DNA from: a virus
IMG/VR virus record: IMGVR_UViG_3300048091_000383
Location: 1-25,027 of that record
Length of the DNA: 25,027 nt
Direction: 5' to 3' (one strand)
In this document: one piece after another, positions 3 to 22,438 of the stretch
Numbering within the stretch: the stretch's first letter is position 1
Layout: each line of letters begins with the position of its first letter
The notes under the pieces: generated by a model
The model's database searches: none
What the model was told of the DNA's origin: nothing
Seen by the model: only the letters and a program-made list of their open reading frames with translations
Position numbers and translations under genes: made by a program

Positions 3-323
3 GCGGTACGGCGGCGTCTGTCCGGTACGCTGTCCGAATTGAATGCACTGCGGGAGCGCTATCCGGACTATATGTTGCCGATCCCGGCCCAGGGGGGGCC
101 GGGGTACTCGTGCTTAGACGTTGAACAAGAAGTAGCCTCAAGAACTCGCTCTGCAGCCCAACATCACTTATTTTTACCTTATTTGTACCCGGTTTCATAC
201 CCGGTTCCAAAATTCTGTAGCGATGTCGACAACCCGCCTATTCACTACGGAAGATGTCCACTTTCGTCTCTAAACATTTTCGAAGCGAAAGGTCGTTTGC
301 CCCGATCTCGAACCAGCCGCTAG
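3..323 (+). CDS. possible 3' end of an unrecognised flanking gene (partial)
   Basis: An open frame enters from the left edge (frame starting at base 3) and runs to a stop at about 323. Its first 30 or so codons look protein-like, with a charged helix followed by RYPDYMLPIPAQ. The later part is low-complexity in character and overlaps the 3' end of brxL by 86 bases in convergent orientation. I recognise no family. The true gene may lie mostly outside the window and be fused to unrelated sequence at an island junction, or the frame may be spurious. It is recorded because nothing else occupies 1-237. Confidence 0.2.
   Translation, partial: AVRRRLSGTLSELNALRERYPDYMLPIPAQGGPGYSCLDVEQEVASRTRSAAQHHLFLPYLYPVSYPVPKFCSDVDNPPIHYGRCPLSSLNIFEAKGRLPRSRTSR
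186..206. repeat. short direct repeat downstream of brxL
   Basis: TACCCGGTT occurs twice (186-194 and 198-206), separated by 3 bases, about 30 bases past the brxL stop. It is not an inverted repeat, so it is not a hairpin terminator. I see no convincing Rho-independent terminator between 85 and 237. Confidence 0.5.
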
Positions 324-2328
324 GCTTTTGATAGAAATCGAGGCCACGCCCAATCTTGATGATCCAGCCGTTGTCGAGGCGAACCTCACGGTCATGGATG
401 TTCGGGTTGAGCTTCACTTCTAACTCGACATCCAATTCCAAGAGACTCTGCTTGAGCTCGTCGAGCTTCTCGGCAATATCAACCAACTGGGTCTTGTCGT
501 CGTATCCAGTGATCAGACTGATCTTCTTAACCGTTCCTGCCTTTAAAACCGTTTCACAGAAGCGAACGAAGTTCTGAATTTGATGTTGCAACCGGATGTA
601 CGGGTCTTCGATCACGACTGACTTCGCCCCGCGCAAGTAGGGGCCGAGGATGGACTCATAGCTGTACCCGGTATCGCCATAAAGGATAGTAAAGTGCTGT
701 TCTTTAAGCTCTACCGATGACAACGTAACCTCTGCTGCTGGCGTAGCAATCGGTGCTTGGGCGGTTGCGGGTTTCGCTACAGGCGACTCCGGCAGCGCTT
801 CGACTGCAGCGCAGAGTTGGCCATCAGCCCTATTCAAACGACGACGAGCCGGCTCTTGCGTCGCAGACACGTCCTTCGATTCTGGGCAGAAGACCACCAC
901 CTCTTCACCGCTGGCATTGAAGTAGGAGAGATTAATCTTCGCGAATTCGTCATCCGGCTTGCGCTTGTTCATCTGCTCCTTGACTCGACGACGACATTCC
1001 GTCGCGAAGGCAACGTATTCCTCAAACTCGTCGTCAGAGGGCGGTCCATGCGGGTGAAGTATCTTCAAGAAGGCGCAAACGGTCTTTTTAATCCCCTTTT
1101 CGTCGCGCCCTTCGATAGCCTTGCCGAGCCGGATGCGCTTATTAACTTCCTCGTAACGATTCGTATGCTTGAACTGATAGTGGAAGGCCTCTGCCAAGTA
1201 ATCGGTGATAAAACCGTAGTTGCTGGTCAAGAACTCGCTACTGTTTTTTGGCATTTCCCAGCCTGGAATATACGCTGCAAAGCGATCCATGACCGCCAAG
1301 TCCAACTCGAGCGGAAGCGGTTGGAAAAGGTCATGCTCGTTAGAATTCACAACCTGTTGCACCGACACGTCAATGTTCCCAACAAAGCTCAGGCTTGCAT
1401 CGGCAATGACTTCGGCCCCACGTGAAAAGCGTCCGTTGGCCATAAAGTCCTTCATGATTTGGATGGTATCCGGGTCTTTAACTTTGATGCCGCCCACCTC
1501 GTCAAAAGCCACTGTGTCCCAAAATCCGACCAGCCCCACTTTTCGGCGTGCGTTGTTGTAGAACAGCGTTGCCTTGGTCGCTTGCCCCCCCGAAATCAAG
1601 GTGGCGTAGGGAGAGAACTCGCTGAAAAAATAGGACTTGCCGGTGCCGCGTGGCCCTAGCTCGATGTAGTTGTAGTTGGGTTCGACCAACGCAGCCAACC
1701 TGGCGATGAAGTGCATCTGCACGCGCTTCGAGAGCTTACTAGGCTCCAGACCAACGGAACGCAACACCGCCGCGAGCCATTCATCACGCGTAAACGCCGC
1801 ACGCCCTTCTGTATATCGCTCGAAGTCAAAGCGAGTCAGCTGGATGGGGCGCAGGTCCTCAATCGAGAACGCGTAATCATCCTCATCAATGTCGTTGTGC
1901 GCCAAGGTGACTTCTGCCCAAATGCCGCCTTCCAGCAAGCGATCATTGTCCCGGTAGAATTTCTCGCCAATGGCAATGCGCTGCGAGTTGAAGTTCTCCA
2001 GCGAGGCCCAGTGGCGCTTTTCCTTTTCAACATAGCGAACATGAACCTTATCGATGAAGCGGTGCTTGCCCTTCGTGGCCACCCTGGACTGAGCCGCATT
2101 GGCTTCATCTGGCCGAACGTAGTTTTCCTGCAGCGACGAGAGCACAGCTTCCATGCCAGCGTCCATCTCTGCCTGGTCATTGCTAGCGCAATATTTGGCG
2201 AGCAGAAACTCCAGAACGAACGTCGGGACGTTGGTGCCTTTCTTGATTCGATGCAGCAGGTCCTTGCGGAGCACCTTACCGTCGAATGTGGAGTTTAGCT
2301 TTTGGTCGAGTTCGTCCATAGGGCTCAT
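238..2328 (-). CDS. brxL: BrxL-type AAA+ protein with MIT_C/PLD-like C-terminus
   Basis: This is the last gene of the BREX operon, 696 aa. BrxL proteins are ring-forming AAA+ DNA-binding motors needed for phage restriction in type 1 systems. Visible features are an N-terminal helical/OB-like region, Walker A GPRGTGKS at about 225-232, Walker B VAFDEV at about 273-278, and a sensor-like segment FVGNID at about 315-320. A Pro/Ala-rich linker (about 480-540) follows. The C-terminal 154 residues do not look like the Lon-type protease domain usual for BrxL. Instead they resemble the MITD1 C-terminal phospholipase-D-like domain, with IHDREVR at about 644-650 followed by NGW and KIGRGLDFY. The start codon overlaps the pglZ stop by 4 nt. 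The gene appears less GC-rich than pglZ, which hints at a separate origin. The AAA+/BrxL call is firm; the C-terminal domain assignment is from pattern memory. Confidence 0.88.
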   Translation of the reverse strand: MSPMDELDQKLNSTFDGKVLRKDLLHRIKKGTNVPTFVLEFLLAKYCASNDQAEMDAGMEAVLSSLQENYVRPDEANAAQSRVATKGKHRFIDKVHVRYVEKEKRHWASLENFNSQRIAIGEKFYRDNDRLLEGGIWAEVTLAHNDIDEDDYAFSIEDLRPIQLTRFDFERYTEGRAAFTRDEWLAAVLRSVGLEPSKLSKRVQMHFIARLAALVEPNYNYIELGPRGTGKSYFFSEFSPYATLISGGQATKATLFYNNARRKVGLVGFWDTVAFDEVGGIKVKDPDTIQIMKDFMANGRFSRGAEVIADASLSFVGNIDVSVQQVVNSNEHDLFQPLPLELDLAVMDRFAAYIPGWEMPKNSSEFLTSNYGFITDYLAEAFHYQFKHTNRYEEVNKRIRLGKAIEGRDEKGIKKTVCAFLKILHPHGPPSDDEFEEYVAFATECRRRVKEQMNKRKPDDEFAKINLSYFNASGEEVVVFCPESKDVSATQEPARRRLNRADGQLCAAVEALPESPVAKPATAQAPIATPAAEVTLSSVELKEQHFTILYGDTGYSYESILGPYLRGAKSVVIEDPYIRLQHQIQNFVRFCETVLKAGTVKKISLITGYDDKTQLVDIAEKLDELKQSLLELDVELEVKLNPNIHDREVRLDNGWIIKIGRGLDFYQKPSGWFEIGANDLSLRKCLETKVDIFRSE

Positions 2329-4853
2329 TCCGTATAGTCGGTTTCAAGCGCCAGATTGCTGTAGGCGGCCAGGGTTGTGGGGTTCAGCGTTTTGACCGAG
2401 AACTTGCCTCTGAACTCATCATCCATTCGCAGCGCAATCTGTTTGCGCTTGCCTGGCATCAGGGTCACGGTTCTGGTCGCGGGGTTCACATCGCCGCCTG
2501 GGCGCGGCTCTCCTACCACATTGCCCTTGCTGTCCTGTGCTTCCACCAATATCTCCACGCTCAGATCTTGTGAGAACATGTCGTCGGCCACCAGTATCAC
2601 TTCGATGACCGGCAATCGCGTAGTTATTCGTTTGGCTCCGTTCTTGTAACTCAGATCCACCACTACCTTGCGCAATTCCGCATGGGAAGCGGTATCCAGC
2701 CGGGCCACCAGCACCGGCACAACGGCCTCCGCCAGGGACGCCCCGCCGTGGAAATACACGTGCCCTGAGCGATAGGGAGCCATGCTGCGAGGTAGCGCCA
2801 CTTGTGTGAAATCACCGCGAATGCCGACCTTTTCTGCGCCGACAACCAGGCTATGTGCGTCGGCTGTGCCGTCGCCTAGCATCATGCGGTCGTGGGCATT
2901 CACCAGCCATTTCCCTTGCGGTTTCACGCACACATCGCCGGCCTCCGCATGAGCATTGAGGAAGAAGCCATGGTCGGTGACGATTACCGCCTCTTTGAAG
3001 CCCATGCCACGCAGCTTATGTAGCGCGACTCGGATCAGCTTGAGCGTGCCGGGGATCAGGCCTAGCGTTGTCTCGGGGTTGCTTTCAAGTTGGCTGTCGA
3101 TTTCCGTGGAGCGTAGCACCAGCAGATCGACGGTGTCTGCGATCTTCGGATTGCCGCGTACAAAATCGTTGAGCGGCATTTCCGCGAAGCGATCGCCATA
3201 CCGCTTGGACAGCACATTCATACGCTGCGGGACGTTGCTTACTGGAGTACCCGCCAACTTCGGTACCAGTGAATCGCTCTCCAGTGACAGTGTCAGCCCC
3301 GTGCGTGCACCAGGGAGCAAACTCGCCATACCTACCAGGGTGATGGTCGGCAGCTGCGCATAGGCTGCTTGCAGCTCCACCGGCCCATCCTCCGCCAGCA
3401 GTTTTTCGAGCGCCACGCCCAGCTCATAGCGCAGGGCGTCCACCATCAGGTATGCGACCTTGCGCCCGCTTTCCTTGAGGCGATCTGCCACCAGGCGATC
3501 AAAGGTATCGGAGTTGGCCAATCGCCCAGTCGGCGGCCACCCCGTAGTCTCAACGTGCTTCACGAACACGCCCTGGACCTTTTCGGCCAAACGCCGATAG
3601 CGGGCCCGAGCCTGGCCAATCACCTCATGCATCAAGCCATGTGGGTCGAGGAAGTCGCCCGCCGCTTGCTCAAACTCGCGCTGCAAGCGATCTGCCTCGC
3701 GTAGGCTGCCCAGGTAGAAGTCGATCAGCTCCGCTTGCGAGCGGGCGTGATCCGGGAGCTGGCGCTCAAAATCGTCGCAAGCCTCAACTAGGCTCAAGCC
3801 AGACCGCACCAACTCCCACTGGGCCTGGCTTTCGCCCTTGCCGAGCCATACCGAGCTCTTATGGCGAGTCAGCACATGGCGAGTGGCATCGGTGTCGCCG
3901 CTGACAATTCCCTTGATCGCTGTGCGCAGGAAGGTTCGCTCCTCGAAGGGGAAGGTGTCGCGCTCGCCCAGGTCTTCAATCGCACCACAAAGATCGGTCA
4001 GATTGAGTTCCGCCTCGGTGGTCTCAGCGCGCTCGATGTATATCGCGCGTGACTTCGGATCGCTGCGCAGCCGGTCGCACACATCCTCGACGATCGGTCT
4101 GGCTTCCATCGGTGCGTGTGGCACACCCTTCAGGGTGTCCGGCAGCGCCACTGGCAGATCAAATACAAACTCACTGAACAGCACGTAACGCCACAGTTCA
4201 TCCGCCAGGGCAGACCAGGTCTTGCTGCGCGTCTTTACGCTCAGACCCAAGGTAGCGCGGAGGAAGTCATGCGCCTCTTGTACCCAGCCTTCCTGCCCCT
4301 TGAGAGCTTCGGATTGGCTTATACTGGGGGCCAGTAGTGCAGCCAGAATCTCGCGGCCGGACTCAACCCGCAGAGTGGCTCGTAACTGGGGCCAGCTCAC
4401 ACCGCCGCCAATGGCATCGATCACTGCATAGGTCGGCCCAGAGTGAGATGCGGCAAACACCTGCCGAATCTCGGTCGCGTGATCCGGCCTGGCGCGCAGA
4501 CATAGGCTCAGATACTCGTCGCCATCATCTTGCGGGAACACCGCGCCGCATTCTGCGTACAGGGCGAATGGATCAGCTTGCTTCTGCTCGTCGGTTTCCG
4601 GGCGCTTGGCGGGCACATAGATCAACACCCCTTCCAACGGTGCCTTGGGCTGCCCCACCTCGCGCAGTGCCTGCAGCGCCGCCTCACGGCTTTCGATGCT
4701 GCTTTCAGACGCATCGACCACTCGCACCTTGTCGGTGGCCAGATCGAAACACTGCTCGCGGTAGCGCTTGTCGGCGTCATACACCACCAAGGCGCCAGCT
4801 TGTTTCAGGCGCGGTCGCAGCACGCTTTCTCGAATGAATTCCGCAATCGTCAT
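2325..4853 (-). CDS. pglZ: BREX PglZ alkaline-phosphatase-superfamily protein
   Basis: 842 aa. PglZ is a core BREX protein of the alkaline phosphatase superfamily. Published work shows metal-dependent nuclease or phosphodiesterase activity for some members. The PglZ domain is recognisable from VAYLMVDALRYEL (about 467-478, metal-binding Asp), LPTITLVGMASLLPG (about 501-515), IVTDHGFFL (about 624-632) and HGGASLAEAVVP (about 702-713, conserved His). The N-terminal 400 residues are a helical BREX-type region, and the last 120 look like a beta-sandwich. The start ATG overlaps the stop of the upstream GmrSD-like gene by 4 nt, and its own stop overlaps the brxL start by 4 nt, so translation is probably coupled. 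All expected metal-site motifs look intact. Confidence 0.93.
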   Translation of the reverse strand: MTIAEFIRESVLRPRLKQAGALVVYDADKRYREQCFDLATDKVRVVDASESSIESREAALQALREVGQPKAPLEGVLIYVPAKRPETDEQKQADPFALYAECGAVFPQDDGDEYLSLCLRARPDHATEIRQVFAASHSGPTYAVIDAIGGGVSWPQLRATLRVESGREILAALLAPSISQSEALKGQEGWVQEAHDFLRATLGLSVKTRSKTWSALADELWRYVLFSEFVFDLPVALPDTLKGVPHAPMEARPIVEDVCDRLRSDPKSRAIYIERAETTEAELNLTDLCGAIEDLGERDTFPFEERTFLRTAIKGIVSGDTDATRHVLTRHKSSVWLGKGESQAQWELVRSGLSLVEACDDFERQLPDHARSQAELIDFYLGSLREADRLQREFEQAAGDFLDPHGLMHEVIGQARARYRRLAEKVQGVFVKHVETTGWPPTGRLANSDTFDRLVADRLKESGRKVAYLMVDALRYELGVALEKLLAEDGPVELQAAYAQLPTITLVGMASLLPGARTGLTLSLESDSLVPKLAGTPVSNVPQRMNVLSKRYGDRFAEMPLNDFVRGNPKIADTVDLLVLRSTEIDSQLESNPETTLGLIPGTLKLIRVALHKLRGMGFKEAVIVTDHGFFLNAHAEAGDVCVKPQGKWLVNAHDRMMLGDGTADAHSLVVGAEKVGIRGDFTQVALPRSMAPYRSGHVYFHGGASLAEAVVPVLVARLDTASHAELRKVVVDLSYKNGAKRITTRLPVIEVILVADDMFSQDLSVEILVEAQDSKGNVVGEPRPGGDVNPATRTVTLMPGKRKQIALRMDDEFRGKFSVKTLNPTTLAAYSNLALETDYTE

Positions 4854-6658
4854 TTGTCACCCCGCAGGCTCAGGATGGACATCACCTCCTTGAGCATCTT
4901 GTCTGTTCTCGCCGTAATGGCGGCCTCGTTCCAATCATCCTGGCTAGCCAAGTCGGCATTCAGGTACAAACCGTTGCGATAGCCAATGAAATCGCCCTGA
5001 TCGTTCTTGCGATCCCGCTTCTTCAAGAACTCCATTGTGCCGAGCTTCGAGTTGTAGCCACTCAGAGTCAGGTTGCCGAGCTGGTGAGCACAGCGCTCGC
5101 GAATGGCAGCCGCAGTACCTTTATGAGCCCCTTCGAGCATCGTCACCCAGCCCGGTCCTAAGTTCTCGGTCTTCGGTAGGATGTGTTCAACGGTAAATAC
5201 GGGGCGGTCATTGGCGTCATGTGCCCACAGGTCGCGTTTGTTTTCCCGGGTTTGGTGTGTCTCTTCCAGCTTGCAGAGCATGAACCGCGTGGCCTCGTAA
5301 TTCTCGAGGTACACGTCGCCCTTGAGGCGCGACTCACAAACCTCTTGCGGGGTTGCTCGTGCCAGCAACCAATCACTGGTTTGCTGGATGAAGCCGTCCA
5401 GCGTCGTGATCTCGCCACTGCGAATCTGCGTCAGCAAGTGGCTCACCAGCTCCATGAACATCGGGTCGAGTTCGCGGGTGGGCGGCATATCGGTGAGGTT
5501 GCGCCAGAAGAACCACTTGGTGAGCAAGGCGGCCAAGCGGCTCAATGCGTCACCCTCAGTCCACTTCTGGCTCTGCGCTACCTGGCTGCCCCACAGCAAG
5601 AATGCATAAGCCGGCGCGGCCCCCAAGCGCTGGAGGTCCTGCAAGGCGACTGCGGCGGCGTCTCCCCATTCCTCTTTTGCCATGGTGGGGTTGAGCAGCG
5701 CCGAGTAGGTTTTGCCCTTGGCCTGCAGCGCGCCGAACAGCCACACCGGGCGCTTGCGCAGCAGGGTGTCGTAGATGGTGATCAGGTTCGAGCGCGTGGC
5801 GCGGGTGCAGCCTTTTACCTCCACCCGCTTGAGGTACTTGAACATGTTGTACAGCTGGCGCAGAAAGCGCTCCTGCACCGCCGAGTCGGGCAACAGGTCG
5901 ATCAGGTCTTTCCATTCGTCAAATGCCCGGTCGATGCCATAGTCGGGGCACTTGTCCAATTCGGCCAGCAAATTGTTCTTGATGATGTCGATGGCCGAGA
6001 GCGGGATCCCCCGGTTGTTGATTGACTCGAACAACATGAAGGCATCGGAATGGCTGCGCACCTCGATCTTGACCAACATGGCGGTTTTGAGCTTCTCCAG
6101 CAGGGCCAGTGCGCTGTCCTGGCTCAGCCCATCAAGTCGCTCGCAGAAGTAGCGGTAAGCGCGCGCAATGCGGCGGTTGCCGAAGTTGCTCAAGCCCTTC
6201 GGCGCTTTTACCTGTTTGGGGAACAGATCACTCAGCACCTTTTGGAAATCGGTCTTGTTCTGTGCTTGCTCGCTGGGTTCCAGACGCCACTGACCAGAGG
6301 TGCGGACGAAAATGCGGCTTTCCAGGTTGTCCAGCTCCACCAGCAGGCGGCGATCAGGATTCAGAATGGCATTCAGCTTGTCGTAGAACGCACAGAACAA
6401 CAGGCTGATGGTGGTAAACCGCTGTTGGCCGTCGATCAACTCTAGTCGGCTACCGGCCATGCCATCTTGCTGGGTGTTCACGCAAATGATGGAACCTAAG
6501 AAGTGCCCGCTGGGCGACTCCTCCAGGTCATTGAACAGCGCATCCCAGTTCTTGCTGCCCCATACATATTCGCGCTGGTACTTGGGAATGAAGAATGACG
6601 TTGTCCCATCGGGGCTGAAGTAGAAGCTGACCGGCAACGCTTTGACGTCCTGAATCAT
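4850..6658 (-). CDS. GmrSD-like (DUF262/DUF1524) type IV restriction nuclease
   Basis: 602 aa single-chain protein. GmrSD/BrxU-family enzymes hydrolyse NTPs and cut phage DNA carrying modified (e.g. glucosylated) cytosines. The DUF262 (GmrS-like) part shows IPKYQREYVW at about 24-33 and IDGQQRFTT at about 75-83. DGQQR is the nucleotide-hydrolysis signature. The DUF1524 (GmrD-like HNH) part shows EHILPK at about 491-496, GNLTLSGYN at about 528-536, and a conserved W near 578. The gene lies inside the BREX operon between pglX and pglZ, with 4-nt overlaps at both ends, so it is made together with the BREX proteins. This resembles the BREX-plus-BrxU pairing known from some enterobacterial plasmids, where BrxU covers phages BREX cannot stop. 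The family call is firm; substrate specificity is inferred. Confidence 0.88.
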   Translation of the reverse strand: MIQDVKALPVSFYFSPDGTTSFFIPKYQREYVWGSKNWDALFNDLEESPSGHFLGSIICVNTQQDGMAGSRLELIDGQQRFTTISLLFCAFYDKLNAILNPDRRLLVELDNLESRIFVRTSGQWRLEPSEQAQNKTDFQKVLSDLFPKQVKAPKGLSNFGNRRIARAYRYFCERLDGLSQDSALALLEKLKTAMLVKIEVRSHSDAFMLFESINNRGIPLSAIDIIKNNLLAELDKCPDYGIDRAFDEWKDLIDLLPDSAVQERFLRQLYNMFKYLKRVEVKGCTRATRSNLITIYDTLLRKRPVWLFGALQAKGKTYSALLNPTMAKEEWGDAAAVALQDLQRLGAAPAYAFLLWGSQVAQSQKWTEGDALSRLAALLTKWFFWRNLTDMPPTRELDPMFMELVSHLLTQIRSGEITTLDGFIQQTSDWLLARATPQEVCESRLKGDVYLENYEATRFMLCKLEETHQTRENKRDLWAHDANDRPVFTVEHILPKTENLGPGWVTMLEGAHKGTAAAIRERCAHQLGNLTLSGYNSKLGTMEFLKKRDRKNDQGDFIGYRNGLYLNADLASQDDWNEAAITARTDKMLKEVMSILSLRGDK

Positions 6659-8577
6659 TCATCGCCTCCGGTCTTCTTCCGACCACGCGTCTTCTTCGGC
6701 GCTGACTCAGGCTCGATGTATAAATCCTCCAGACTATGGGCGATGGCGAGCGACTTGTCCGTCTTGCACTTTTCACGCACACGTTCGGGCCAGTAATTCA
6801 TGGCCAGGTGCGCCCAGTCGTAGTCGCCTTTTTCCACCTTGGCCCAGGTGTCTTTGAGCATCTTTTGCCATGGCTTGTGACGGAACAACGGCCACAGCGG
6901 TGCGGCGCTGATCTGTACGCCGTCGTCATGGATTGGCTTGTAGGTCGGTGCGAGCTTGAGCAGAATGTCGCGCAGCTCGATCAGCTCCAGCTCAAAGGCT
7001 TGCAGGGCTTCGAACTGTTTTTCATCGTCGCGAGTGCGGGCAGAACCTTTGTTGCGCAGCACGGTCACGTCCGTGCCGACTTGTTTGAGCTTGGGCTCGA
7101 CGAAGTCGTTGATGGCGGTATAGAGCGTCTGGCTGCTGAGGGTGGGGTAATAGACCCACAGCGTGTAACTACCAGAAGTGGTGCTCAGCGGCCAGTAGAT
7201 GGGTGCTTTGCGGCGGCTCTTGGAGTAGCGCTGCAGATGGAAGGGGAAAAATTCTCGCTGTAACCAGTGGCGAACATCCTCCGGCACTGGCACCTCAACG
7301 CGAACTAGCACTTCCTCCACTAAACGCGCGAGGTCATGCGGGTGCCCTTGCTCGTCTACCAGGATGCCAACGTGGGAGTGAAATGACTCATCACCATCCG
7401 GTAACATGCCAGGACTTTTGGCTGGTAATGGGTCGAAGGGCTCTGGCTCGGGCGGTGCCGCGCGCTCGCCGGTGGCCAGGCGCCAGTCGAAGCGACCAAA
7501 GGCTACACCGACAGACCACGAAAGTAACGCTGATTGTCTGTCGGCAGGTACCTGCTCTTCTTCCTCATCCTCGGCATCTTCTTGATCTGTGGCGCCGTCC
7601 TCAGTGGCTACTGTCTGAGTGACGGTGGCACGATCAGTGCTGGAGAATCCATAGATGTCAAAGGCTACATCGTCGATCTCGGCCTGAATCTTTGTGAGGT
7701 CGGTTTCGATGGCTTCGGGCGCGAACTCGCCCGTACGGCCACGTAAGATGGCTGGCAGCAAAAAGGAATGCGATGTTTCTTCGATGGTGTTGAGCGTGCG
7801 CTTAAGCGACCAGGCTTTAAGAACCAGAGACGTTAGACGATCAGACTTATCCCGTTCGACACTTGGGATTGGCATCCGCTGGAGCGCACCGCCGGCAAAT
7901 TCTGGGTGGCCAAATCGCCCGAGCAAAAGCTTAAAAATGAAATCAGCGCACGAACTGCTGAGCAACCCAATCAACCAAAGCAGGTCTTCATCGGGAGAAA
8001 AACCGCCACAGCCTCTTTTGCTAAATGCACATCCCGCAGGCAACACCGATGGAGCGAAGTGCGACGCTCGAAGCGGCCACGTAAATCCAGGACGAAAGTA
8101 GAACTCGGTGGCATTGATCATGGCCGTCCATTGATCACCCCAGCCATGGGACGAACGATATGCGGACGCGAAAGCTTTCAGTTCAACCCCGTCATTTGTC
8201 CAAAGTACGACGAAAGGCAAGTCGGAATAGAAGGACGATGGTGAACCGCCCTTGGCCAACGGCACCCATTCCGAATTTGACAAGGCTTCTGGGGTGGCTA
8301 TCTCCCAGAAGAGTCGCAAGAATCGCGCATCATCATTCGTCGCCAATCCCGCTTTTGCCGTTCTGTCATGTCGCTCAAACGCAGGATGGTTTGAGAACAG
8401 GTCTCTGAGTTGGTCGCCAACCCAATATGCAAACGGCGCCCCGGGTACCGCGCGGAAAGAGTCAGGTCGCGCATCAAAAACTCTTGATTCGCTTTGTCCG
8501 GCTCTCACAGCGGCGCAGGTAGCCAGGAGCGCAGTTGATTTTTCCTTTTCGGCGAGCAATCGCAAGAAAGTAGTCAT
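6655..8577 (-). CDS. pglX: PglX C-terminal half: target-recognition and tail domains
   Basis: 640 aa. It corresponds to the C-terminal half of a normal (about 1200 aa) PglX methyltransferase. The order is FLRLL and KAGLATNDDARFLRLFWE (about 74-91), which continue the usual PglX sequence just after the catalytic core. A recognition-domain-like region (about 100-245) comes next, then an acidic linker (about 330-342), and then the conserved PglX tail RYSKSRRKAPIYWPLS (about 450-465) and its continuation to about 477. It has no SAM-binding or NPPF motif and so cannot methylate alone. It presumably pairs with the product of the preceding ORF to recognise the BREX site. The start ATG overlaps the stop of that ORF (ATGA). 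There is no homopolymer or simple repeat at the junction. By eye the recognition region is more AT-rich than the flanks, as expected for swapped specificity modules. Confidence 0.85.
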   Translation of the reverse strand: MTTFLRLLAEKEKSTALLATCAAVRAGQSESRVFDARPDSFRAVPGAPFAYWVGDQLRDLFSNHPAFERHDRTAKAGLATNDDARFLRLFWEIATPEALSNSEWVPLAKGGSPSSFYSDLPFVVLWTNDGVELKAFASAYRSSHGWGDQWTAMINATEFYFRPGFTWPLRASHFAPSVLPAGCAFSKRGCGGFSPDEDLLWLIGLLSSSCADFIFKLLLGRFGHPEFAGGALQRMPIPSVERDKSDRLTSLVLKAWSLKRTLNTIEETSHSFLLPAILRGRTGEFAPEAIETDLTKIQAEIDDVAFDIYGFSSTDRATVTQTVATEDGATDQEDAEDEEEEQVPADRQSALLSWSVGVAFGRFDWRLATGERAAPPEPEPFDPLPAKSPGMLPDGDESFHSHVGILVDEQGHPHDLARLVEEVLVRVEVPVPEDVRHWLQREFFPFHLQRYSKSRRKAPIYWPLSTTSGSYTLWVYYPTLSSQTLYTAINDFVEPKLKQVGTDVTVLRNKGSARTRDDEKQFEALQAFELELIELRDILLKLAPTYKPIHDDGVQISAAPLWPLFRHKPWQKMLKDTWAKVEKGDYDWAHLAMNYWPERVREKCKTDKSLAIAHSLEDLYIEPESAPKKTRGRKKTGGDE

Positions 8578-10466
8578 GCTTGTTTCTCCAATACGTACGC
8601 TGCCGCCTCAACCATGGCGTCGTCCATCACCCCATGGCCTAAATCAGCCATCGCTTCAGGTTTGGCAATACCGAGTACAACGCCTTCTCTCCAGTTACGA
8701 TAAGTCGTCAAGAAGAAACATGTCCGCGACGTTATTGCACCAATGCGTCCGCCAGGGCGCAGCAGTTCCAGGCCCCGCTCCACCATAATGGCCAGCAAGT
8801 CGTTTTTGCTACGCGGATATGCCTTGGCGAGCTGATTCTTTGTGTTTGCCGCTAACGCCCCGAATGGTGGATTCATAACCACCACATCGAACACCTCTCG
8901 ACAGAGATCGATTAGCCGCAGACCCTGCAACGCGTCCTGTGCAAACAGCCGCCCCTGGTAGGTCGATTTCGCGGCATGGGCAAATTCGGTGAGTGCCTGT
9001 CGCAGCCGTGCCTCTGCTTGCTGCCAGTTCTCCTGCTCCTGTTGGGCAAACAAGCCAGTACCTTTGCCGACATAAACCTGACGAATCAAGTGAGGCAGCT
9101 CCCGTTCGACCTGGAGCAGCACACCCATTTCCGGCAGCCCCTTGAGCAGTTGGAGGGTCTTCTCGAACAGCTCGGCATCGCGCTGATCGAGGTTGGCCGC
9201 AAGTTGCTGGCGCAACTCGCGTTCTGCAGGCGGCGCAATGGCGGCGACCACATGGCCCCGGCCAATCAGCGGCCGTTCTCTGGCCTTCAAACCGGCGTCG
9301 TGCCAGGCGCGCTGCGCCCGCAGCCACAGCGCCAGCGACGCGATTTGCGCGGCGCGCGGATCGATGTCCACACCGTAGATGTTGTGTTCGATGATCAAAC
9401 GCGGAACGTCGCGCAGAAATGCCGCCTCGTCCTTGTAAGTCTGGCTCAGTGGTTTCAGCTCCGCTTTGGGCTGAGTCGAGACATCCAACGAGCCGGGGCC
9501 GTGCTGTTGTTCCCAGGCCCATGCTTCGCGGTAGATATCGGCGAACAGATCAAAGGCGTATAGGCCGAAGTGCATGGAGCCGCAGGCCGGGTCCAGCAGC
9601 TTGAGAGTGCGGGGGTCACGCAGCTTGATGGCGGCTTGAGGCGTTTCGTCCGGCTTCACCAGCAGGTACTGGCAACGATCACGTAGGCCGGTGGCCCCGC
9701 CCGTGACGTTGAACCAGAGACGCCCGAGGGTGTTGTCCACTAGGAACTCAACCACGTAGCGCGGCGTGAAGAACTGGTTGCGTACCGCAAGTTCGCGGCT
9801 ATTGCGCGGCGCCTGGCTGGCATCGCGCATGGCCTTGCGCTCTTCCTTGGAGTTGAAGTACTGGTAGATCCAGCCGATGGTTTCGTCCTCACTCCACAGC
9901 AGGGCGATGTCGGCATCGTGGATCAGATTCAGCACTTGCAGCAGTGCTGCCTCGCGCGGGAACAGGCGGCCCTGCGGTGAGTAGCGGTCGAACAGGCCCG
10001 GCAGGTCTTGGGCGAGCTCATCGAACACGCTGAACAGGTACACGCGGTAGGCATCGCCGGTTTCGCCCAGGCCGGTGCCAGCTAGGCGCGCGTAGAGCTG
10101 AAAGCCCTTGGCCTGGAAACCATTGCCGACCGATTCAACCAACAGACCACGCGCCTCGGCCATGCGCAGCGCGGCCAGGCGATTGAGCACGGTGAAGGCC
10201 TGCTCGCGCACGATGCGATCCAGTCCCTGCATAACGTTCATGTCGCCGCTGGCGGTGTAGTGGGCCAGGGTGTCGCGCAGGATCCGGGCGGTTTCGCGCT
10301 GGGCGTCATTGATGTGCCGCAGACTGGCCAGATCGGCCACGGTGCCCGCGTTGGGGTCCATGCCGTAGTCGTTCTGTAGCTGGCGAGTGAACTCCTCTTC
10401 CAGCACGCGGCGCGCATCGTTGACGAAGCGCTGCAAACGGTTTCTTGTTGTTTGGTCGAAGGCCAT
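8574..10466 (-). CDS. pglX: PglX N-terminal half: adenine-specific DNA methyltransferase core
   Basis: 630 aa from ATG at 10466; an AGGAA about 8 nt upstream supports this start over the TTG one codon earlier. PglX methylates N6 of adenine in a non-palindromic BREX motif, marking self DNA. Visible features are the typical PglX helical N-terminus, QFFTPRYVVEFLV (about 231-243), SAM-binding motif I DPACGSMHF (about 292-300) and catalytic motif IV NPPFG (about 532-536). The usual RTCFF and GVMDDAMVEAAAYVLEK sequences that close the catalytic core come last. The ORF ends at once after this point, where an intact PglX would run on into its recognition domain. That missing part is the next ORF, entered through an ATGA overlap. 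The gene starts 10 nt after the helicase stop. The catalytic residues look intact. Confidence 0.92.
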   Translation of the reverse strand: MAFDQTTRNRLQRFVNDARRVLEEEFTRQLQNDYGMDPNAGTVADLASLRHINDAQRETARILRDTLAHYTASGDMNVMQGLDRIVREQAFTVLNRLAALRMAEARGLLVESVGNGFQAKGFQLYARLAGTGLGETGDAYRVYLFSVFDELAQDLPGLFDRYSPQGRLFPREAALLQVLNLIHDADIALLWSEDETIGWIYQYFNSKEERKAMRDASQAPRNSRELAVRNQFFTPRYVVEFLVDNTLGRLWFNVTGGATGLRDRCQYLLVKPDETPQAAIKLRDPRTLKLLDPACGSMHFGLYAFDLFADIYREAWAWEQQHGPGSLDVSTQPKAELKPLSQTYKDEAAFLRDVPRLIIEHNIYGVDIDPRAAQIASLALWLRAQRAWHDAGLKARERPLIGRGHVVAAIAPPAERELRQQLAANLDQRDAELFEKTLQLLKGLPEMGVLLQVERELPHLIRQVYVGKGTGLFAQQEQENWQQAEARLRQALTEFAHAAKSTYQGRLFAQDALQGLRLIDLCREVFDVVVMNPPFGALAANTKNQLAKAYPRSKNDLLAIMVERGLELLRPGGRIGAITSRTCFFLTTYRNWREGVVLGIAKPEAMADLGHGVMDDAMVEAAAYVLEKQA

Positions 10467-10476
10467 CAATCAATTC

Positions 10477-13197
10477 CTATTGTTCTGTGCCTGCTTGCTG
10501 TGAACCAGGCGCTTGCCAATCCTGGCCAAAGTGAGCGCGCAGGCTCTCGATGGCGGGCGGCAAAGCGCCGTCGCAGGTCACACCCAGGTAAGTGGCCGCA
10601 CGGGTGGTGCCCACGTACAGGTATTTGTCGAAGAGCGCTGGGTGCAATGCGGCGAGCTGGTCAATTCCGACGAAGAACACCGCTTCGAACTCCAGGCCCT
10701 TGATGTGCTGGATGTCGAAGACGCGCACATTGCTTTCCTGGCCCACCGCCTGACCCTCGCGGCAGGCAATGACCTGGATGTTGTGCTCGGACAGGACTGC
10801 GTTTAGTGCCTCAGCAACCGGTACCACGTCGTCTTCAGTATTCACAAAGATGGCGGTGGACGGCAGCTGACCGACGAAACGCTCGATCTCTCGGATGCGG
10901 TCTGCCAACCAACTCACCACGATTGCTGTGTCTGTGGCGTGCTCCAGGAGCGCGGGCGCTACGCCGCCACTATCCACGTGTGCGGGCAAGCTGACGTTCT
11001 GCTCGGTGCCGCCGACGGCGCGGATCATGGCGCGAGCCAGATCGTTCAGTTGCTTGCTCTGCCGATAGGAGACGGAGATCTCCTGGATGTCGAAGTCGGC
11101 AAAGACCCACTTCATTTCATCGGCGGACCGCGCACCCCAGGTGGTCAGGCGCTGGTTGAAGTCGCCGCAGGCAAAGAATGAGCGCAGCCGTGGATGCGCC
11201 AGGGCGGCCATACAGGCCAGCTGGATAGGCGAAAAGTCGGTGGCTTCATCCACCAAGACCTGGTTGCGGTAGTGCCCCAGGATGGGCTGGAGTGCCGACC
11301 AAGCGGGGCTGTCGATATCTCGCTGCACGTTGGGCCGGCTGATCAGGTCGCCTGCGGCGCGCAGGATGGCGAGCAGCACAATGTCCAGTTCGAGCGGATG
11401 GATATCGCGGGCTTCGAAGCCTTCGTTGCGATACCAGCTCCCGGCTTGCTGGCGTTCGCGCCGGAACGCACGGTAGCGCTTGGGAATGCCGTCGAGATAA
11501 CGCTTGACCGGGTTCACGAAGCGGCGCGCGTTGGTCTGCACGAGCAGACTCGCACCCACTTCGGCGCGGTCGGCTTCTGTCAGGCCACGCTCTGCCAGCC
11601 ACTCAATGATTTTTCCGTTGCGTGATGACTTGCTGACCGCGCGCTTTGATGCTGCCGCACGGGCTTGGGCTCGCACCGCTTGCATGTAGGCGTTGAGAGC
11701 AGCGGCACGACCGGTGCGTGGTGCCGTGGTGTCTTCTTCCTCGTCAGCATCGAGTTCGTCTTGTTCATCTGCATCGGTGGCCTGGACTTGCTGCAGACCA
11801 TCAATGAAGCGCGCCAACTCATCTAGAAATGCCCGGTGGCGGTTGAGCTGGAGGTTGAGTGCGGCTTTGATCTTTCCGTCAGAGGCTTCTTTCAGGCTGG
11901 CAACGAGTGCCTGTACTTTCGGGAGCTCGGCTGCCAAGGACCCGAAGGTGGAAGCCAACGCGCCATCGCCCGCTTGCGTCAGAATGCTGTGCAGCCGATC
12001 GCCCAAGCGCTGGACATCTGGCGCCTTGCCTTCGCGGAGCATGTTGGCCGCTTCATGCAGCTCTTGCACGTAGAGATTGCGCTGCCATGTGTTGAAATCG
12101 TCGAACCAATGAATCGGGCGATCCAGCGCCTCACCACTCAGATTTGGCAGGCTGTCTTTCAGTACAAAGATGCCACCACCCGATGCGGTTCTAAGAACGC
12201 CGAAAGCGTTTCTGGCCAGTTCGCGCCGGTAGTCCTGCCAGGTTCTAATGCGCAGATCGGAGGCGGGAACGCCTTCACGCGCAAAAGCCTCCTTAAGGTA
12301 CTGCTTGAGCAATTCGGTGGGCGTGAACATTAGCCAGCTGTTGGCGTGCGAGACGCCCTGGGTGGTTGCCACCGTCTCAATCAGACGTTGTTCGCCTTCG
12401 TCCAGAAAGGCAGTGTCGAGCTTCTGGCCGAGACGACGAATCAAGGTTGTCGTCTTACCCGTGCCGGGCGGACCAAGAATCAGCAAGCGCTTGTCGAGGG
12501 GAAGGCGAAAAATCTCATCCTGGTATTGGTCCAGAACGGGCTGATCGCGCAGCCCCATCTTGGTGATGACGCTTCGGCGCACGCCGTCGATGATGTTGGC
12601 CTTGACGGTTTCTTCGGCCAGTAATTGACCCAGGAGGTCTTCGGTGACTTCTTCTCCGGCAACCTCAATCAGTAGCGCTCGCAACGACTCGATAGTGAGT
12701 GGGCCGAAATGCTCAGCTTCCACCACGGTGTCGCGCGAATCCCAGCCATCGGCCAGAGCGGCGGGGCGGAGTTGAGCGCGCTCCAAGACCTCGACAACGG
12801 TGCCATTGGGCAGGGCGAATTCAGCCCCGATTGCCAAAGAGGCCAGACGACCAACCGGGGCACGGTAACTGGCCAGATTCTGAAAACCCGAAACCGGCGT
12901 GGTTCGACAGATGTAATAGGTGCGCTCGTCGCCTTCCTCATCCACAACAACGACACGGGCGATCGCAGGCTCGGCTGCCAATACCTGATAGCTCTCTCGG
13001 TTCGCCTGGCTGATCCGATCCAGTTTCTGGATGGCCGAGCTAGACGTCATCGTATTGACGCTCGCCAAGGCATCGGAGCCCAGCTTTCGACCATCGTGCA
13101 GGTTGCGTTTTGCAGCCGTAGAGATGCTGTCGAGCTGGGTGAGCGCCTCGCCTGCGACCTGCTCGATGTGTTGCCTGGATCTGGTAGTCAGTTCCAT
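10477..13197 (-). CDS. SF1 (UvrD/HelD-like) helicase with N-terminal Gre-like domain
   Basis: 906 aa. A superfamily 1 ATP-dependent helicase/translocase: Walker A GPPGTGKTT (about 242-250), VLVDEATDFSP (about 647-657, motif II), GDFNQRL (about 678-684, motif III), SYRQSKQL (about 710-717, motif IV) and YVGTTRAATYLGV near 861-873 (motif VI). A long insertion, including an acidic stretch at about 476-489, separates the first motifs. Residues about 80-143 resemble the C-terminal domain of GreA/GreB transcript-cleavage factors (DEEGDERTYYI, then APVGRLASL, then LPNGTVVEVLE). They follow a helical N-terminus of about 75 residues. It sits between brxC (2 nt away) and pglX (10 nt away), so it belongs to the BREX operon, but it is not one of the named BREX helicases (BrxHI/BrxHII). 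The domain layout suggests contact with RNA polymerase, which is only an inference. Confidence 0.85.
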   Translation of the reverse strand: MELTTRSRQHIEQVAGEALTQLDSISTAAKRNLHDGRKLGSDALASVNTMTSSSAIQKLDRISQANRESYQVLAAEPAIARVVVVDEEGDERTYYICRTTPVSGFQNLASYRAPVGRLASLAIGAEFALPNGTVVEVLERAQLRPAALADGWDSRDTVVEAEHFGPLTIESLRALLIEVAGEEVTEDLLGQLLAEETVKANIIDGVRRSVITKMGLRDQPVLDQYQDEIFRLPLDKRLLILGPPGTGKTTTLIRRLGQKLDTAFLDEGEQRLIETVATTQGVSHANSWLMFTPTELLKQYLKEAFAREGVPASDLRIRTWQDYRRELARNAFGVLRTASGGGIFVLKDSLPNLSGEALDRPIHWFDDFNTWQRNLYVQELHEAANMLREGKAPDVQRLGDRLHSILTQAGDGALASTFGSLAAELPKVQALVASLKEASDGKIKAALNLQLNRHRAFLDELARFIDGLQQVQATDADEQDELDADEEEDTTAPRTGRAAALNAYMQAVRAQARAAASKRAVSKSSRNGKIIEWLAERGLTEADRAEVGASLLVQTNARRFVNPVKRYLDGIPKRYRAFRRERQQAGSWYRNEGFEARDIHPLELDIVLLAILRAAGDLISRPNVQRDIDSPAWSALQPILGHYRNQVLVDEATDFSPIQLACMAALAHPRLRSFFACGDFNQRLTTWGARSADEMKWVFADFDIQEISVSYRQSKQLNDLARAMIRAVGGTEQNVSLPAHVDSGGVAPALLEHATDTAIVVSWLADRIREIERFVGQLPSTAIFVNTEDDVVPVAEALNAVLSEHNIQVIACREGQAVGQESNVRVFDIQHIKGLEFEAVFFVGIDQLAALHPALFDKYLYVGTTRAATYLGVTCDGALPPAIESLRAHFGQDWQAPGSQQAGTEQ

Positions 13198-13199
13198 GC

Positions 13200-16100
13200 T
13201 TAGTTCCCACCCGTTCCAGGCTGGTCACCCACAACAAGAGACACTTCGATCTCGGCATACAGCGCGAGCTGAGCCTTGATTTCATGAAGCTGCTGAATCA
13301 GCGCGTCGATGTCCGCCGCCGAAGTCATCTTCACCGGCACGGCGATCGACTTGGTGAGCTTGGCCGGGCCTTTCTCGCCGGTCTTGGCCCGCTCTTCTTC
13401 CATGCGCTGGCGCAGGCGTTCCTGGCCCTGGCGCTGGATCGACCGCTTCAGGTTGTCGAGGGTGCTGTTGATGTCGTAGTCGCGGGCCAACAGCTTCTTG
13501 AGTCCAGCCAGATCCTGTGTTGCTGTCAGGGCGAGCCCGTCCAGCCGGTTCACGGCGTTGCCGCGCTCCTCCTGGGTGAGTTCTTCCCACTCGGGTATGC
13601 GCTGCAGATCCTCTACACCTTCCTTCAAACGCAGCTTTTGCTGATCGGAAAGCGTGATGACAGCATCGCGCACGCGGCTCTTCAGATGGGTGAGCTGCGA
13701 ATTGAAGTCGGCGGTGTGTTTGTAGAAATCTTCTTTGCCCAGGCGCTCTGACAGGGTTCCCAGGTCCTCGGCAAGTTCGCGGCGCAGCTCCCCTGGCACG
13801 CCGGTATCCGGCAAGGCCTCGATATCACGGCGATGGGCCTGAAGATCCCGAAGGGTGGCTTCGAGCCCGTTGTCGAGTACGCGCTTCACTTCCAGCGCCC
13901 ACTTGAGGTTATCGTAAATCGCGGAGGTTTCGGCGCCCAGGCGCTGTGGAGCGTCTGAGGCATCGGTGAACAGGACGTCGGCAATGTCCTGGTTCAAGGT
14001 GCGGATGCGGTCACTGCCCGCCAATCCAAGGCCACTGAGCTTTTCGGCCAAGGAGCCGTAGTCGTGCTGGAAACGCGGGAAGTGCTTTGCTGCTGCCTTG
14101 CTGATCTCTTGCTCCAATGGAATAACCATGTCGCCCACCAGTTCAGTGAGCCGCTCTGCCGCCCGACCGAGCGTTTCGATGGACGGACGCTCGTCGCGCA
14201 GCGCGACGCCAATCTGCTTGAAGGAGTTGTTGGTCTTCAGCGCGTCGATCGCCTGTTGCCCTGCAGCTGTGACCTCACGCCCCGAGACCTTGAGTTTGAT
14301 TTCGCCCGCCATGAGCATGGCGGCCACGATGTAGCGCGTGGTATCGGGTGACCAGCCGAACGGATCGTTGCTGAAATCGTCGAGCAGGCGCTTGCCATCG
14401 ACGGTACCGCGCTTGTCAATGTAGTCGCGGATGCTGATCATCGCCTTGTGGTCGGTCTTGAACGAGGCGCGACCTGCCACGGTTTGCACCAGGCTGAGTG
14501 GGTCCAGCGTACTGCTAATGGCGGCGGGGTTGGCGACCTTGAGGAATTTCTCGGCGGTGTCGGTTCCCGCACGTACCGGAGCTTCTACGTACCGGTCGAA
14601 CACCTGGTCAGCTACGTCGGAAAGCAGCTTCTTGGCGGCCTCCAGCAGATCGGCATCCAGCGCCGACACCGCCGTGGCCTGTCCCCGGAACACAAACGAG
14701 CCTGCTTGCAGGGTTTGCTTGATCTTGCTCTGCAGCTGGGTAGCCAGCTTGGCAGCACGGTCGAGCTGGCCAGTGCAGTAGTCTTTGACCTCTTGGTCAG
14801 GCTCGTTGCGATGCAATTCAGCGATGCGCTGGCAGCGATAGATTTCGTTTGCCAGATCGTCGAGTTCGGAATTGGCGCGAGCCAAGAGCCCGATGACATT
14901 TCGACCCGCCCGGCTGCGGGAGTCATCCAGCATCCGGTTCTTGGCGGTCTCATAGTCGCTGGCGGGCACCAACTCGACAACGGTCTGGATCGTGCTTTGA
15001 TCACCGGCCAGGCTAGTGATGGTGCTGCCGGACTGGATTTTCAGGCCCGTTGCGACAGCCATCGTGCCATGAAGACTGACGCGGGGCAGCGGGTCGAATG
15101 ACTCGCGCAGTGCATCGTTAAAGATACGCTTCACGTCCACGGTGCGCAGTGCGATGGCACCACGCTCCTGCTCGATATCCCGCAACTTTTCACTGAGGAA
15201 CACAAGGCTGCCATCCTTCTCGCCTAGAGGCACATGCACGTCGTTCAGCATCTCTTCAACGGCACTCTTCACCGTGTCGAGCTGTGAAGGTGCCGTGACG
15301 GAGGGATGCATCAGGCTAGCGACGTTCTGCACCGACACCGGAAGGTTACCGAGGATCTGCAGCACGGCGACGGACTTCGCAATGTCCTGATGGAGTTGCG
15401 AATCTGGGAAGCGAATCTGGACCTTGCCAACCGCCTGGTGGATGGACGTGAAAGCGCGACGAATGTCCTTCTCCAGCTCGTCGTAAAGCGTGACCGTGGT
15501 GGCCAGCCAGCCCACGGGCTGATCGGCCATTGCCTTGGTACCGCCTTCACCTTTCAGGACATCCTGGATCACTTTGATCGCAGAGCGCAGGCCGATGCCG
15601 CCGGTGGACTTTGCGAGCGCGCCGAGTAGGTGCAGCAGGATGTCGAAGTGCGCCGGCAGGAACGGGTAGAGATTGGTGAAACTCTCTTTGCTGAAGTCCG
15701 CGTCGTAATACTTGGCGTCCTGCAGCTTGGTATTGTGTCGCAATGCCTGACCATGAGCATCGAACAGCTTGCCAAGCTCAGTCTCGCCCGCTGGAGATTT
15801 GCCGAGCAGACGGCGGTAGCAGATCTCCTTGATATCGCTCGATTCGAGGTCGATCTGGATCGGGAAGCGGTCCTTGAGCTTGTAGAGCTTGTCGGAGTTC
15901 AGTGCGGCGCGTGGGTCGTCTTCCGTCAGCGTCTGCTGCGCCGTAGAGATGATCCATGCCTTGCCGTCTCCCAGCCGCTTGAGGTTCTTGGCCAGGCCAT
16001 CGAGGTTGAGGATCAGGTTGTCGCGCGAGGCCACGTACTGACCGACCTCGTCGACAATGAAAATGATGTTCTGCTTGCCGCTTTTTTCGCGGACGATGTC

Positions 16101-16841
16101 GATCATCTCCTGCACGCGCTGGTCTTCGAACTGGAAGAAGCCCTCGGTGCTGGAAGAGAAGGACTTGGCCTCTGGGAAGAGTGCCGGATACATCTCATAG
16201 GCGATCTTGGGGATCAGCCCGTCGATTGCCAGTGGGTTGTTCTGTACTCGGGCCCAGGTTGCGCCCGGCAGCGCCTTGGCGATCCGTTCATGTAGCTCAT
16301 GCGTGCGCCCATCCTTCTCAACCATGCGCTCGAAGGCCGCGACCTTGAGGTTGCGCGAGTAGCCGGCCCACTGCAGCACTTTGAAATATAGCACCGTGGA
16401 AACATCTTCCATCGTGGCGCCGGCGAGCATTTCGCTGGCGAGGTCAAGCATGACCACGGCGGCCGGGAAGCGCTTCGCCACAGTGCTGAGGAGGGCCTTG
16501 GTCTGTGGCTTGTGAAGGCGATCCTGCAGGTAGTTGATGAACGGCGTGCTGTCGATAGTACGGTGATCGTCAAACGCCAAGCCGAGATACTTGGTGAACG
16601 AGCTCTTACCAGAGCCGTAGAAGCCAGAGACCCAGACGCCCACCTCATTTTCGCCACCGGATTCCATCGCAAGCTGCATGCGTTCAAGGAGCTTGCGGAA
16701 CTGCTCTTCAATGCTTTCGGTGACCACGTATTCAGAGATCTCAGCCTTGAGGCGGCCTTCTTGTGAGGCGCCATAGGTGATGACCTTCTCAATGGTCCGG
16801 TAGATGTCCTTGCTTGAATCGAAGAGTGAGCGAATGGTCAT
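13200..16841 (-). CDS. brxC: BREX P-loop ATPase BrxC
   Basis: 1213 aa, the usual size for BrxC/PglY, a very large AAA-like ATPase that is a core BREX component of unknown exact mechanism. The N-terminus carries Walker A GFYGSGKSS (about 73-81) and Walker B IIFIVDEVGQY (about 259-269). The opening MTIRSLFDSSKDIYRTIEKV is characteristic of the family. The rest is mostly helical, with coiled-coil-rich stretches toward the C-terminus. It starts 28 nt downstream of brxB, with no strong Shine-Dalgarno visible, and ends 2 nt before the helicase start. No truncation or motif loss is seen. Confidence 0.95.
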   Translation of the reverse strand: MTIRSLFDSSKDIYRTIEKVITYGASQEGRLKAEISEYVVTESIEEQFRKLLERMQLAMESGGENEVGVWVSGFYGSGKSSFTKYLGLAFDDHRTIDSTPFINYLQDRLHKPQTKALLSTVAKRFPAAVVMLDLASEMLAGATMEDVSTVLYFKVLQWAGYSRNLKVAAFERMVEKDGRTHELHERIAKALPGATWARVQNNPLAIDGLIPKIAYEMYPALFPEAKSFSSSTEGFFQFEDQRVQEMIDIVREKSGKQNIIFIVDEVGQYVASRDNLILNLDGLAKNLKRLGDGKAWIISTAQQTLTEDDPRAALNSDKLYKLKDRFPIQIDLESSDIKEICYRRLLGKSPAGETELGKLFDAHGQALRHNTKLQDAKYYDADFSKESFTNLYPFLPAHFDILLHLLGALAKSTGGIGLRSAIKVIQDVLKGEGGTKAMADQPVGWLATTVTLYDELEKDIRRAFTSIHQAVGKVQIRFPDSQLHQDIAKSVAVLQILGNLPVSVQNVASLMHPSVTAPSQLDTVKSAVEEMLNDVHVPLGEKDGSLVFLSEKLRDIEQERGAIALRTVDVKRIFNDALRESFDPLPRVSLHGTMAVATGLKIQSGSTITSLAGDQSTIQTVVELVPASDYETAKNRMLDDSRSRAGRNVIGLLARANSELDDLANEIYRCQRIAELHRNEPDQEVKDYCTGQLDRAAKLATQLQSKIKQTLQAGSFVFRGQATAVSALDADLLEAAKKLLSDVADQVFDRYVEAPVRAGTDTAEKFLKVANPAAISSTLDPLSLVQTVAGRASFKTDHKAMISIRDYIDKRGTVDGKRLLDDFSNDPFGWSPDTTRYIVAAMLMAGEIKLKVSGREVTAAGQQAIDALKTNNSFKQIGVALRDERPSIETLGRAAERLTELVGDMVIPLEQEISKAAAKHFPRFQHDYGSLAEKLSGLGLAGSDRIRTLNQDIADVLFTDASDAPQRLGAETSAIYDNLKWALEVKRVLDNGLEATLRDLQAHRRDIEALPDTGVPGELRRELAEDLGTLSERLGKEDFYKHTADFNSQLTHLKSRVRDAVITLSDQQKLRLKEGVEDLQRIPEWEELTQEERGNAVNRLDGLALTATQDLAGLKKLLARDYDINSTLDNLKRSIQRQGQERLRQRMEEERAKTGEKGPAKLTKSIAVPVKMTSAADIDALIQQLHEIKAQLALYAEIEVSLVVGDQPGTGGN

Positions 16842-20632: not shown

Positions 20633-20640
20633 GGCTTACT

Positions 20641-20677
20641 CCCGAACATGTCTGAAAAATACATTAGACATGTCGGG
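20641..20677. promoter_or_regulatory. inverted repeat upstream of the transposase start
   Basis: ACATGTCT (20646-20653) pairs with AGACATGT (20666-20673), extended by CCCG/CGGG outside one unpaired base. It lies 9-45 nt before the transposase ATG. It could form a hairpin that limits transposase translation from transcripts entering from outside, as known for IS10/IS50, or it could be an operator. Confidence 0.5.
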
Positions 20678-20695
20678 CTCGGGTTAATGCCCGAT

Positions 20696-20712
20696 AGACC
20701 TTGAAAGGGGTG
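20696..20712 (-). repeat. IS right terminal inverted repeat
   Basis: Complement of the 17-bp left end; perfect match. Confidence 0.95.
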
Positions 20713-20723
20713 CGTTTAAAGAC
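20713..20723. repeat. target-site duplication of the IS, right copy
   Basis: CGTTTAAAGAC, identical to 19225-19235. Confidence 0.95.
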
Positions 20724-20750
20724 CTGGTTAACTGATGCAACCAGAGATTT
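20724..20750 (+). terminator. weak Rho-independent terminator candidate
   Basis: CTGGTT (20724-20729) and AACCAG (20739-20744) form a 6-bp stem with a 9-nt loop. They are followed by AGATTTTT. Stability is low. It would stop plus-strand transcripts before the hcp region. Confidence 0.3.
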
Positions 20751-20763
20751 TTGCTATGTCGTC

Positions 20764-20801: not shown

Positions 20802-20897
20802 AGCCACTGTTGTGTCTGGTCTCTCAACCTTTTGAGGCCTGCCAAGCAGCAGTACCCCCGCCAAAGCCAGAATGCCTCACCACACAGCGGAGGCATC

Positions 20898-22406: not shown

Positions 22407-22438
22407 TGTTCCCAGTTCAGCCCCTTAGCCCTCGCCAT

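What the first reader, a model, noticed from the sequence alone, without database searches (positions are those of the whole stretch)
238..700. BrxL with a MIT_C / phospholipase-D-like C-terminus instead of a Lon-like domain
The last 154 residues contain IHDREVR, NGW and KIGRGLDFY, the signature I associate with the MITD1 C-terminal domain, a non-catalytic PLD fold that binds membranes in eukaryotes. A Pro/Ala-rich linker joins it to the AAA+ part. A changed effector domain on the BREX motor could change what it does to phage DNA or where it acts.
Basis: partly seen in the sequence, partly recalled or inferred. Interest (0 to 1): 0.65.

Follow-up and report, generated by a model that had tools for sequence, protein, structure and literature searches.

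The report
Phage-defence motor with PLD-fold tail
The last gene of a bacterial phage-defence (BREX) operon encodes an ATP-driven DNA-binding ring protein whose tail, instead of the usual protease-like domain, is a domain nearly identical in fold to one in a human cell-division protein; the architecture is real but common and already published, while what the tail does has not been shown.

Summary
Confirmed: the minus-strand ORF at 238-2328 (696 aa) is BrxL with its N-terminal and AAA+ domains, and residues 554-694 match Pfam MIT_C at E=5e-52. Human MITD1 matches the same stretch at E about 1e-37. An AlphaFold model of the tail (pLDDT 95) matches MITD1 with TM-score 0.90 and then other PLD enzymes, never Lon. 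There is no sequence similarity to the Lon-like tail of other BrxL.

Not new: a January 2026 paper (PMC12839542) reports 1030 of 2913 Type-1 BrxL with this tail, calls it an HKD-type DNase with an HRD motif, and PADLOC already models the full-length protein. I find it in five bacterial phyla.

Across 141 bacterial copies the HxR...D/N site is almost invariant (H 140/141, R 140/141) and aligns by profile with the HKD of active PLD enzymes, which fits a DNA-acting role better. But lysine never occurs, and human MITD1 has the same residues, so catalysis is unproven.

Added here: the window-type BrxL (from BrxE-carrying BREX) is closer to human MITD1 (42-51%) than to other BrxL tails (26-39%), and the tree groups them with full support.

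The parts
238..2328 (-). brxL, 696 aa, last gene of the BREX operon
   Evidence: PADLOC PDLC02508 matches end to end, E 9e-292
1900..2289 (-). BrxL N-terminal domain (residues 14-143)
   Evidence: Pfam PF20442, E 2.7e-43
928..1869 (-). BrxL AAA+ ATPase domain (residues 154-467); Walker A GPRGTGKS at 1633-1656, Walker B VAFDE at 1498-1512
   Evidence: Pfam PF13337, E 3.6e-119; motifs
694..876 (-). Ala/Pro-enriched linker, residues about 485-545
   Evidence: composition
247..669 (-). MIT_C / PLD-fold domain (residues 554-694)
   Evidence: Pfam PF16565, E 5e-52; AF2 pLDDT 95.2; MITD1 TM 0.90
592..606 (-). DPYIR motif (residues 575-579), R invariant in 141 of 141
373..399 (-). IHDREVRLD: HxR(x4)D, the counterpart of the PLD HKD motif (H645, R647, D652)
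337..351 (-). GRGLD motif (residues 660-664)
2325..4853 (-). pglZ
   Evidence: Pfam PglZ; PDLC02561
4850..6658 (-). GmrSD-type (BrxU-like) type IV restriction gene inside the operon
   Evidence: Pfam GmrSD_N and GmrSD_C
6655..8577 (-). C-terminal half of PglX as its own gene
   Evidence: PDLC02532, positions 1-626 of a 682-position model
8574..10469 (-). N-terminal methyltransferase half of PglX as its own gene
   Evidence: Eco57I; PDLC02527 positions 1-659
10477..13197 (-). UvrD/HelD-like helicase within the BREX operon
   Evidence: UvrD_C_2, UvrD-helicase; HelR/HelD weak
13200..16841 (-). brxC
   Evidence: NF033441 854 bits
16870..17445 (-). brxB
   Evidence: PF08747
17426..18214 (-). brxA
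   Evidence: PF08849
18217..18714 (-). brxE
   Evidence: NF033447 BrxE_fam

Best explanation
This is the BrxL subunit of a Type-1-like, BrxE-carrying BREX system. Shown by sequence and model: BrxL N-terminal and AAA+ parts with intact Walker motifs, and a PLD-fold (MIT_C) tail in place of the Lon-like tail. Inferred: the AAA+ part assembles as a ring on double-stranded phage DNA, as solved BrxL does. The PLD-fold tails pair across two rings, taking over the tail-to-tail joining that the Lon-like domain performs in solved BrxL. That pairing brings two HxR sites together facing the DNA in the chamber, where they bind and probably cut the phosphodiester backbone as an auxiliary effector beside the PglZ nuclease. 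Cutting is the least certain step: about 0.4 for real catalysis, about 0.6 for the tail acting on DNA in some way.
For: Domain matches; AAA+ part about 46% identical to Lon-type BrxL and matching solved DNA-bound BrxL. In solved BrxL the rings bind dsDNA and the C-terminal domain joins two rings tail to tail (PMC10164562). PLD fold by model, with neighbours MITD1, PLD1, Streptomyces PLD and PLD3 co-crystallized with ssDNA. H 140/141, R 140/141, D or N 141/141, RGLD D 141/141 and DPYIR R 141/141. Profile alignment puts H-x-R and D on HKD of PLDc_2 enzymes. Nearly every copy lies on BrxL, in a BREX operon wherever the neighbourhood was read; the other, divergent or weak copies include a helicase-type protein and a protein beside restriction genes. 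An independent paper reads the domain as an HKD-type DNase (PMC12839542).
Against: No activity has been shown by anyone I could find. None of the 141 copies has K at the catalytic lysine position (140 R, 1 C). Two intact-looking BrxL have lost H or R (L142 Q, L007 C). Human MITD1, for which no enzyme activity is known to me, keeps the same H and R. In solved BrxL the C-terminal domains lie far from the DNA (PMC10164562). The isolated tail is not basic (net charge -4). The HKD profile match is modest (78% probability). I could not model the dimer.
Confidence: 0.5

Rival explanations
1. The PLD-fold tail is purely structural: it replaces the (also non-catalytic) Lon-like domain as the dimerisation element that joins two BrxL rings, and the conserved site is a folding or ligand pocket without catalysis.
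For: The Lon-like tail it replaces has no protease dyad and serves ring dimerisation (PMC10164562, PMC12839542). K is absent from all 141 copies. Same site kept in MITD1, a protein described as a dimer (own knowledge of the MITD1 structure paper).
Against: Near-invariance of polar, charged residues (H, R, R, D, R, Q, N) at the PLD active-site positions across phyla is more than dimerisation alone would need.
Confidence: 0.3
2. The tail tethers BrxL to the inner membrane, for example at the site of phage DNA entry, as MITD1's tail binds membranes in cytokinesis.
For: 47% identity and TM 0.90 to the MITD1 membrane-binding domain; the domain is highly conserved between the two.
Against: No membrane-related partners stood out near the copies inspected; copies sit on DNA-processing proteins in restriction loci. 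Net negative charge. What is conserved is the HKD-equivalent site. The lipid-binding surface itself could not be examined.
Confidence: 0.12
3. Ordinary BrxL with a Lon-like tail that the reader mis-assigned.
For: Database names still call it 'Lon protease-like'.
Against: Pfam, PDB sequence match, AF2 fold and direct comparison with Lon-type tails all exclude it.
Confidence: 0.01

Closest known systems
BrxL with C-terminal 'HKD-endoDNase' (HRD motif), Type-1 BREX, PMC12839542; PADLOC PDLC02508
   Same: Same architecture, HxR...D motif and operon setting; PDLC02508 covers residues 4-695 at E 9e-292
   Different: That paper does not mention MITD1 (0 occurrences). Here the system carries BrxE, a UvrD/HelD-like helicase, GmrSD and a split pglX.
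Acinetobacter BrxL (PDB 8EMC, 8EMH; PMC10164562)
   Same: N-terminal and AAA+ domains align over residues 5-472
   Different: C-terminal domain is Lon/RadA-like there and PLD-fold here
Human MITD1 C-terminal PLD-like domain (PDB 2YMB, 4A5Z)
   Same: 47% identity, TM 0.90, identical HxR, RGLD and DPYIR residues
   Different: Fused to an ESCRT-binding MIT domain instead of an AAA+ ring; HRN rather than HRD; eukaryotic cytokinesis

Membership tests
BrxL (BREX) | BrxL_N plus BrxL AAA+ domain with Walker A and B | tested here: met
BrxL (BREX) | lies in an operon with brxA, brxB, brxC, pglX, pglZ | tested here: met
Canonical Lon-like BrxL (TIGR02653 type) | Lon-like C-terminal domain | tested here: not met
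   TIGR02653 matches only residues 5-484 and below its cut-off; no similarity to Lon-type tails
MIT_C (PF16565) | profile match over the curated cut-off, full length | tested here: met
   176 bits against 25, positions 1-142
MIT_C / MITD1 PLD fold | PLD fold | tested here: met
   AF2 and Foldseek
MITD1 protein | N-terminal ESCRT-III-binding MIT domain | tested here: not met
   no MIT domain in the protein
MITD1-like membrane binder | binding to acidic membranes | not testable with these tools
   needs liposome assay; net charge -4 does not settle it
HKD / PLD nuclease | HxK(x4)D catalytic motif | tested here: inconclusive
   HxR(x4)D at the aligned position, K in 0 of 141
HKD / PLD nuclease | DNA cleavage | not testable with these tools
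   no experiment here; PMC12839542 infers it

The most novel reading that the evidence does not exclude
The C-terminal domain of eukaryotic MITD1, a cytokinesis factor, and the tail of BrxE-type BrxL are one close lineage exchanged between bacteria and eukaryotes, most simply from a BREX phage-defence protein into early eukaryotes, and the intact HxR site means that both still bind or process a phosphodiester (nucleic acid or lipid).
Probability: 0.3. Interest if true: 0.65.

Novelty: already known. Interest (0 to 1): 0.3.

Why it matters
The locus itself is an ordinary case of a published BREX variant. It matters because nobody has shown what the tail does: the HxR site can be tested with two point mutations, and the answer would say whether about a third of Type-1 BREX systems with BrxL carry a second nuclease. 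The close kinship with human MITD1 gives that question a eukaryotic side, since MITD1 keeps the same residues.

Tried and rejected
Folding full-length BrxL from a single sequence gave a useless model (pLDDT 39); the domain model with 47 homologues replaced it. Weak MIT_C hits in sugar-ABC-transporter ATPases (L104, L107, L127) are chance-level and below cut-off. Net charge did not separate membrane from DNA binding. Whether MITD1 nests inside window-type BrxL or is their sister could not be resolved (AU p 0.5). I considered MIT_C as a rare fusion or an assembly error and rejected it: 446 relatives by a single motif scan and over-cut-off matches in five phyla. I considered a frameshift in pglX and rejected it: the two halves are separate genes in several relatives.

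Full report
What is there. The window carries a complete BREX operon on the minus strand: brxE, brxA, brxB, brxC, a UvrD/HelD-like helicase, pglX in two genes, a GmrSD gene, pglZ and brxL. brxL is the ORF 238-2328, 696 aa. Pfam assigns BrxL_N 14-143, BrxL_ATPase 154-467 and MIT_C 554-694 (E 5e-52). Walker A and B are intact.

Is the tail really MITD1-like? Yes. Against PDB sequences, solved BrxL (8EMC) stops at residue 472 and MITD1 takes over at about residue 550, E 1e-37. An AlphaFold2 model of residues 538-696 from 47 homologues has pLDDT 95.2 and pTM 0.90. Foldseek ranks MITD1 first (TM 0.90, E 3.5e-21), then human PLD1, vaccinia F13, Streptomyces PLD and mouse PLD3; no Lon fold appears among the 50 listed. 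Lon-type BrxL tails from five plasmids show no similarity to it.

Is it new? No. PMC12839542 (Nucleic Acids Res., January 2026) counts 1030 of 2913 Type-1 BrxL in which the Lon-like domain is substituted by what it calls an HKD-endoDNase with an HRD motif, citing an earlier report. I identify that domain with MIT_C from the matching description (BrxL C-terminus, HRD motif, frequency); its supplementary sequences were not read. PADLOC's PDLC02508 models this full-length protein, and a 2025 paper citing earlier work already lists PF16565 with BREX (PMC12715929). One peptide motif found 446 relatives in GTDB genomes. Over-cut-off MIT_C matches occur in 7/399, 3/251, 6/297, 10/194 and 26/395 genomes of five phyla sampled; each sample includes its seed genome, and a few of the matches are weak or in other proteins.

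The site. In 141 full-length domains: H 140, R (HxR) 140, D 131 or N 10, W 141, R of RGLD 140, D of RGLD 141, R of DPYIR 141 and Q 141. Lysine is never seen. Many of the 141 are close relatives of the window; a set thinned to under 80% identity plus a few (53 rows) still has H invariant and R at 90% or more. Human MITD1 has the same H, R, RGLD and DPYIR, with N at the D position. Profile-profile alignment with 22 HKD domains of PLDc_2 enzymes places H, R and D on HKD (local, 78% probability, E 1.8e-5). That supports the published HRD reading as a homologous position. It does not show activity, and the identical site in MITD1 warns against reading conservation as nuclease catalysis.

Lineages. 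MIT_C tails split into two groups separated by a long, fully supported branch (100/100). Group A contains the window; in all seven cases where the operon start could be seen (window, L002, L003, L160, L162, L163, L164) brxE is present. In group B operons whose start was seen, no brxE match was found. Human MITD1 lies with group A, 42-51% identical to its members against 26-37% to group B, while the window tail shares only 26-39% with group B. Whether MITD1 is inside or sister to group A is unresolved, only one eukaryotic sequence was available, and the direction of any transfer is unknown. A tree of the N-terminal plus AAA+ part is compatible with a single change between MIT_C and Lon-like tails, so the Lon-like tail could even be the derived state; with five Lon-type sequences and long branches this is only a lead.

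How it most likely works. Solved BrxL forms rings on dsDNA, and its C-terminal domain joins two rings tail to tail (PMC10164562). PLD domains with one motif typically pair to form one active site (own knowledge), and MITD1 is a dimer (own knowledge). I therefore infer that PLD-fold tails pair at the ring junction and present HxR sites to DNA in the chamber, adding a DNA-binding or cutting function beside PglZ. Ring and DNA loading: by homology. Pairing: inference. Cutting: inference, about 0.4.

Limits. Sequence and model evidence only; no dimer model, no coordinates to inspect surfaces, and the earlier paper cited for BrxL-HKD (Li 2025) was not held.

Noticed in passing
window 6655-10469: pglX is split into two overlapping genes (methyltransferase half and C-terminal half). 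Relatives L002, L158 and L159 are also split, with two other genes between the halves in L002, whereas L003, L162, L163 and L164 look fused or nearly so, so the split is natural.
   Followed up: partly
window 10477-13197: A 906-aa UvrD/HelD-like helicase sits between brxC and pglX. A close copy is at the same place in L158, and an ATP-binding-domain protein sits after the first pglX half in L002.
   Followed up: no
L177 98-13069, L215 67-15815, L214 1198-5675: A divergent BrxL-MIT_C lies beside a PglZ-like protein in all three; L177 and L215 also have DUF4007 (SspB-like) and an Eco57I-type methyltransferase, and L215 an SspC/BrxC-like ATPase. This looks like a Type-4-like BREX with a methyltransferase, although PMC12839542 says Type-4 BrxL lacks C-terminal extensions.
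   Followed up: partly
L173 16113-19310 (also L149): A 1065-aa protein with MIT_C followed by 16 Sel1 repeats and no BrxL AAA+ part, near a SNF2-type helicase, an Eco57I methyltransferase and an Mrr nuclease.
   Followed up: partly
L125 1-1938: A weak MIT_C-like domain with an HDR motif at the C-terminal side of an MZB-domain (MrfA-like) protein in a 2047-aa frame.
   Followed up: no
window 19253-24545: Beyond the BREX operon: DDE transposase, L,D-transpeptidase, DnaB-like helicase and phage-type replication initiation protein. The record is classed as viral in IMG/VR, so the BREX may ride on a prophage or other mobile element.
   Followed up: partly
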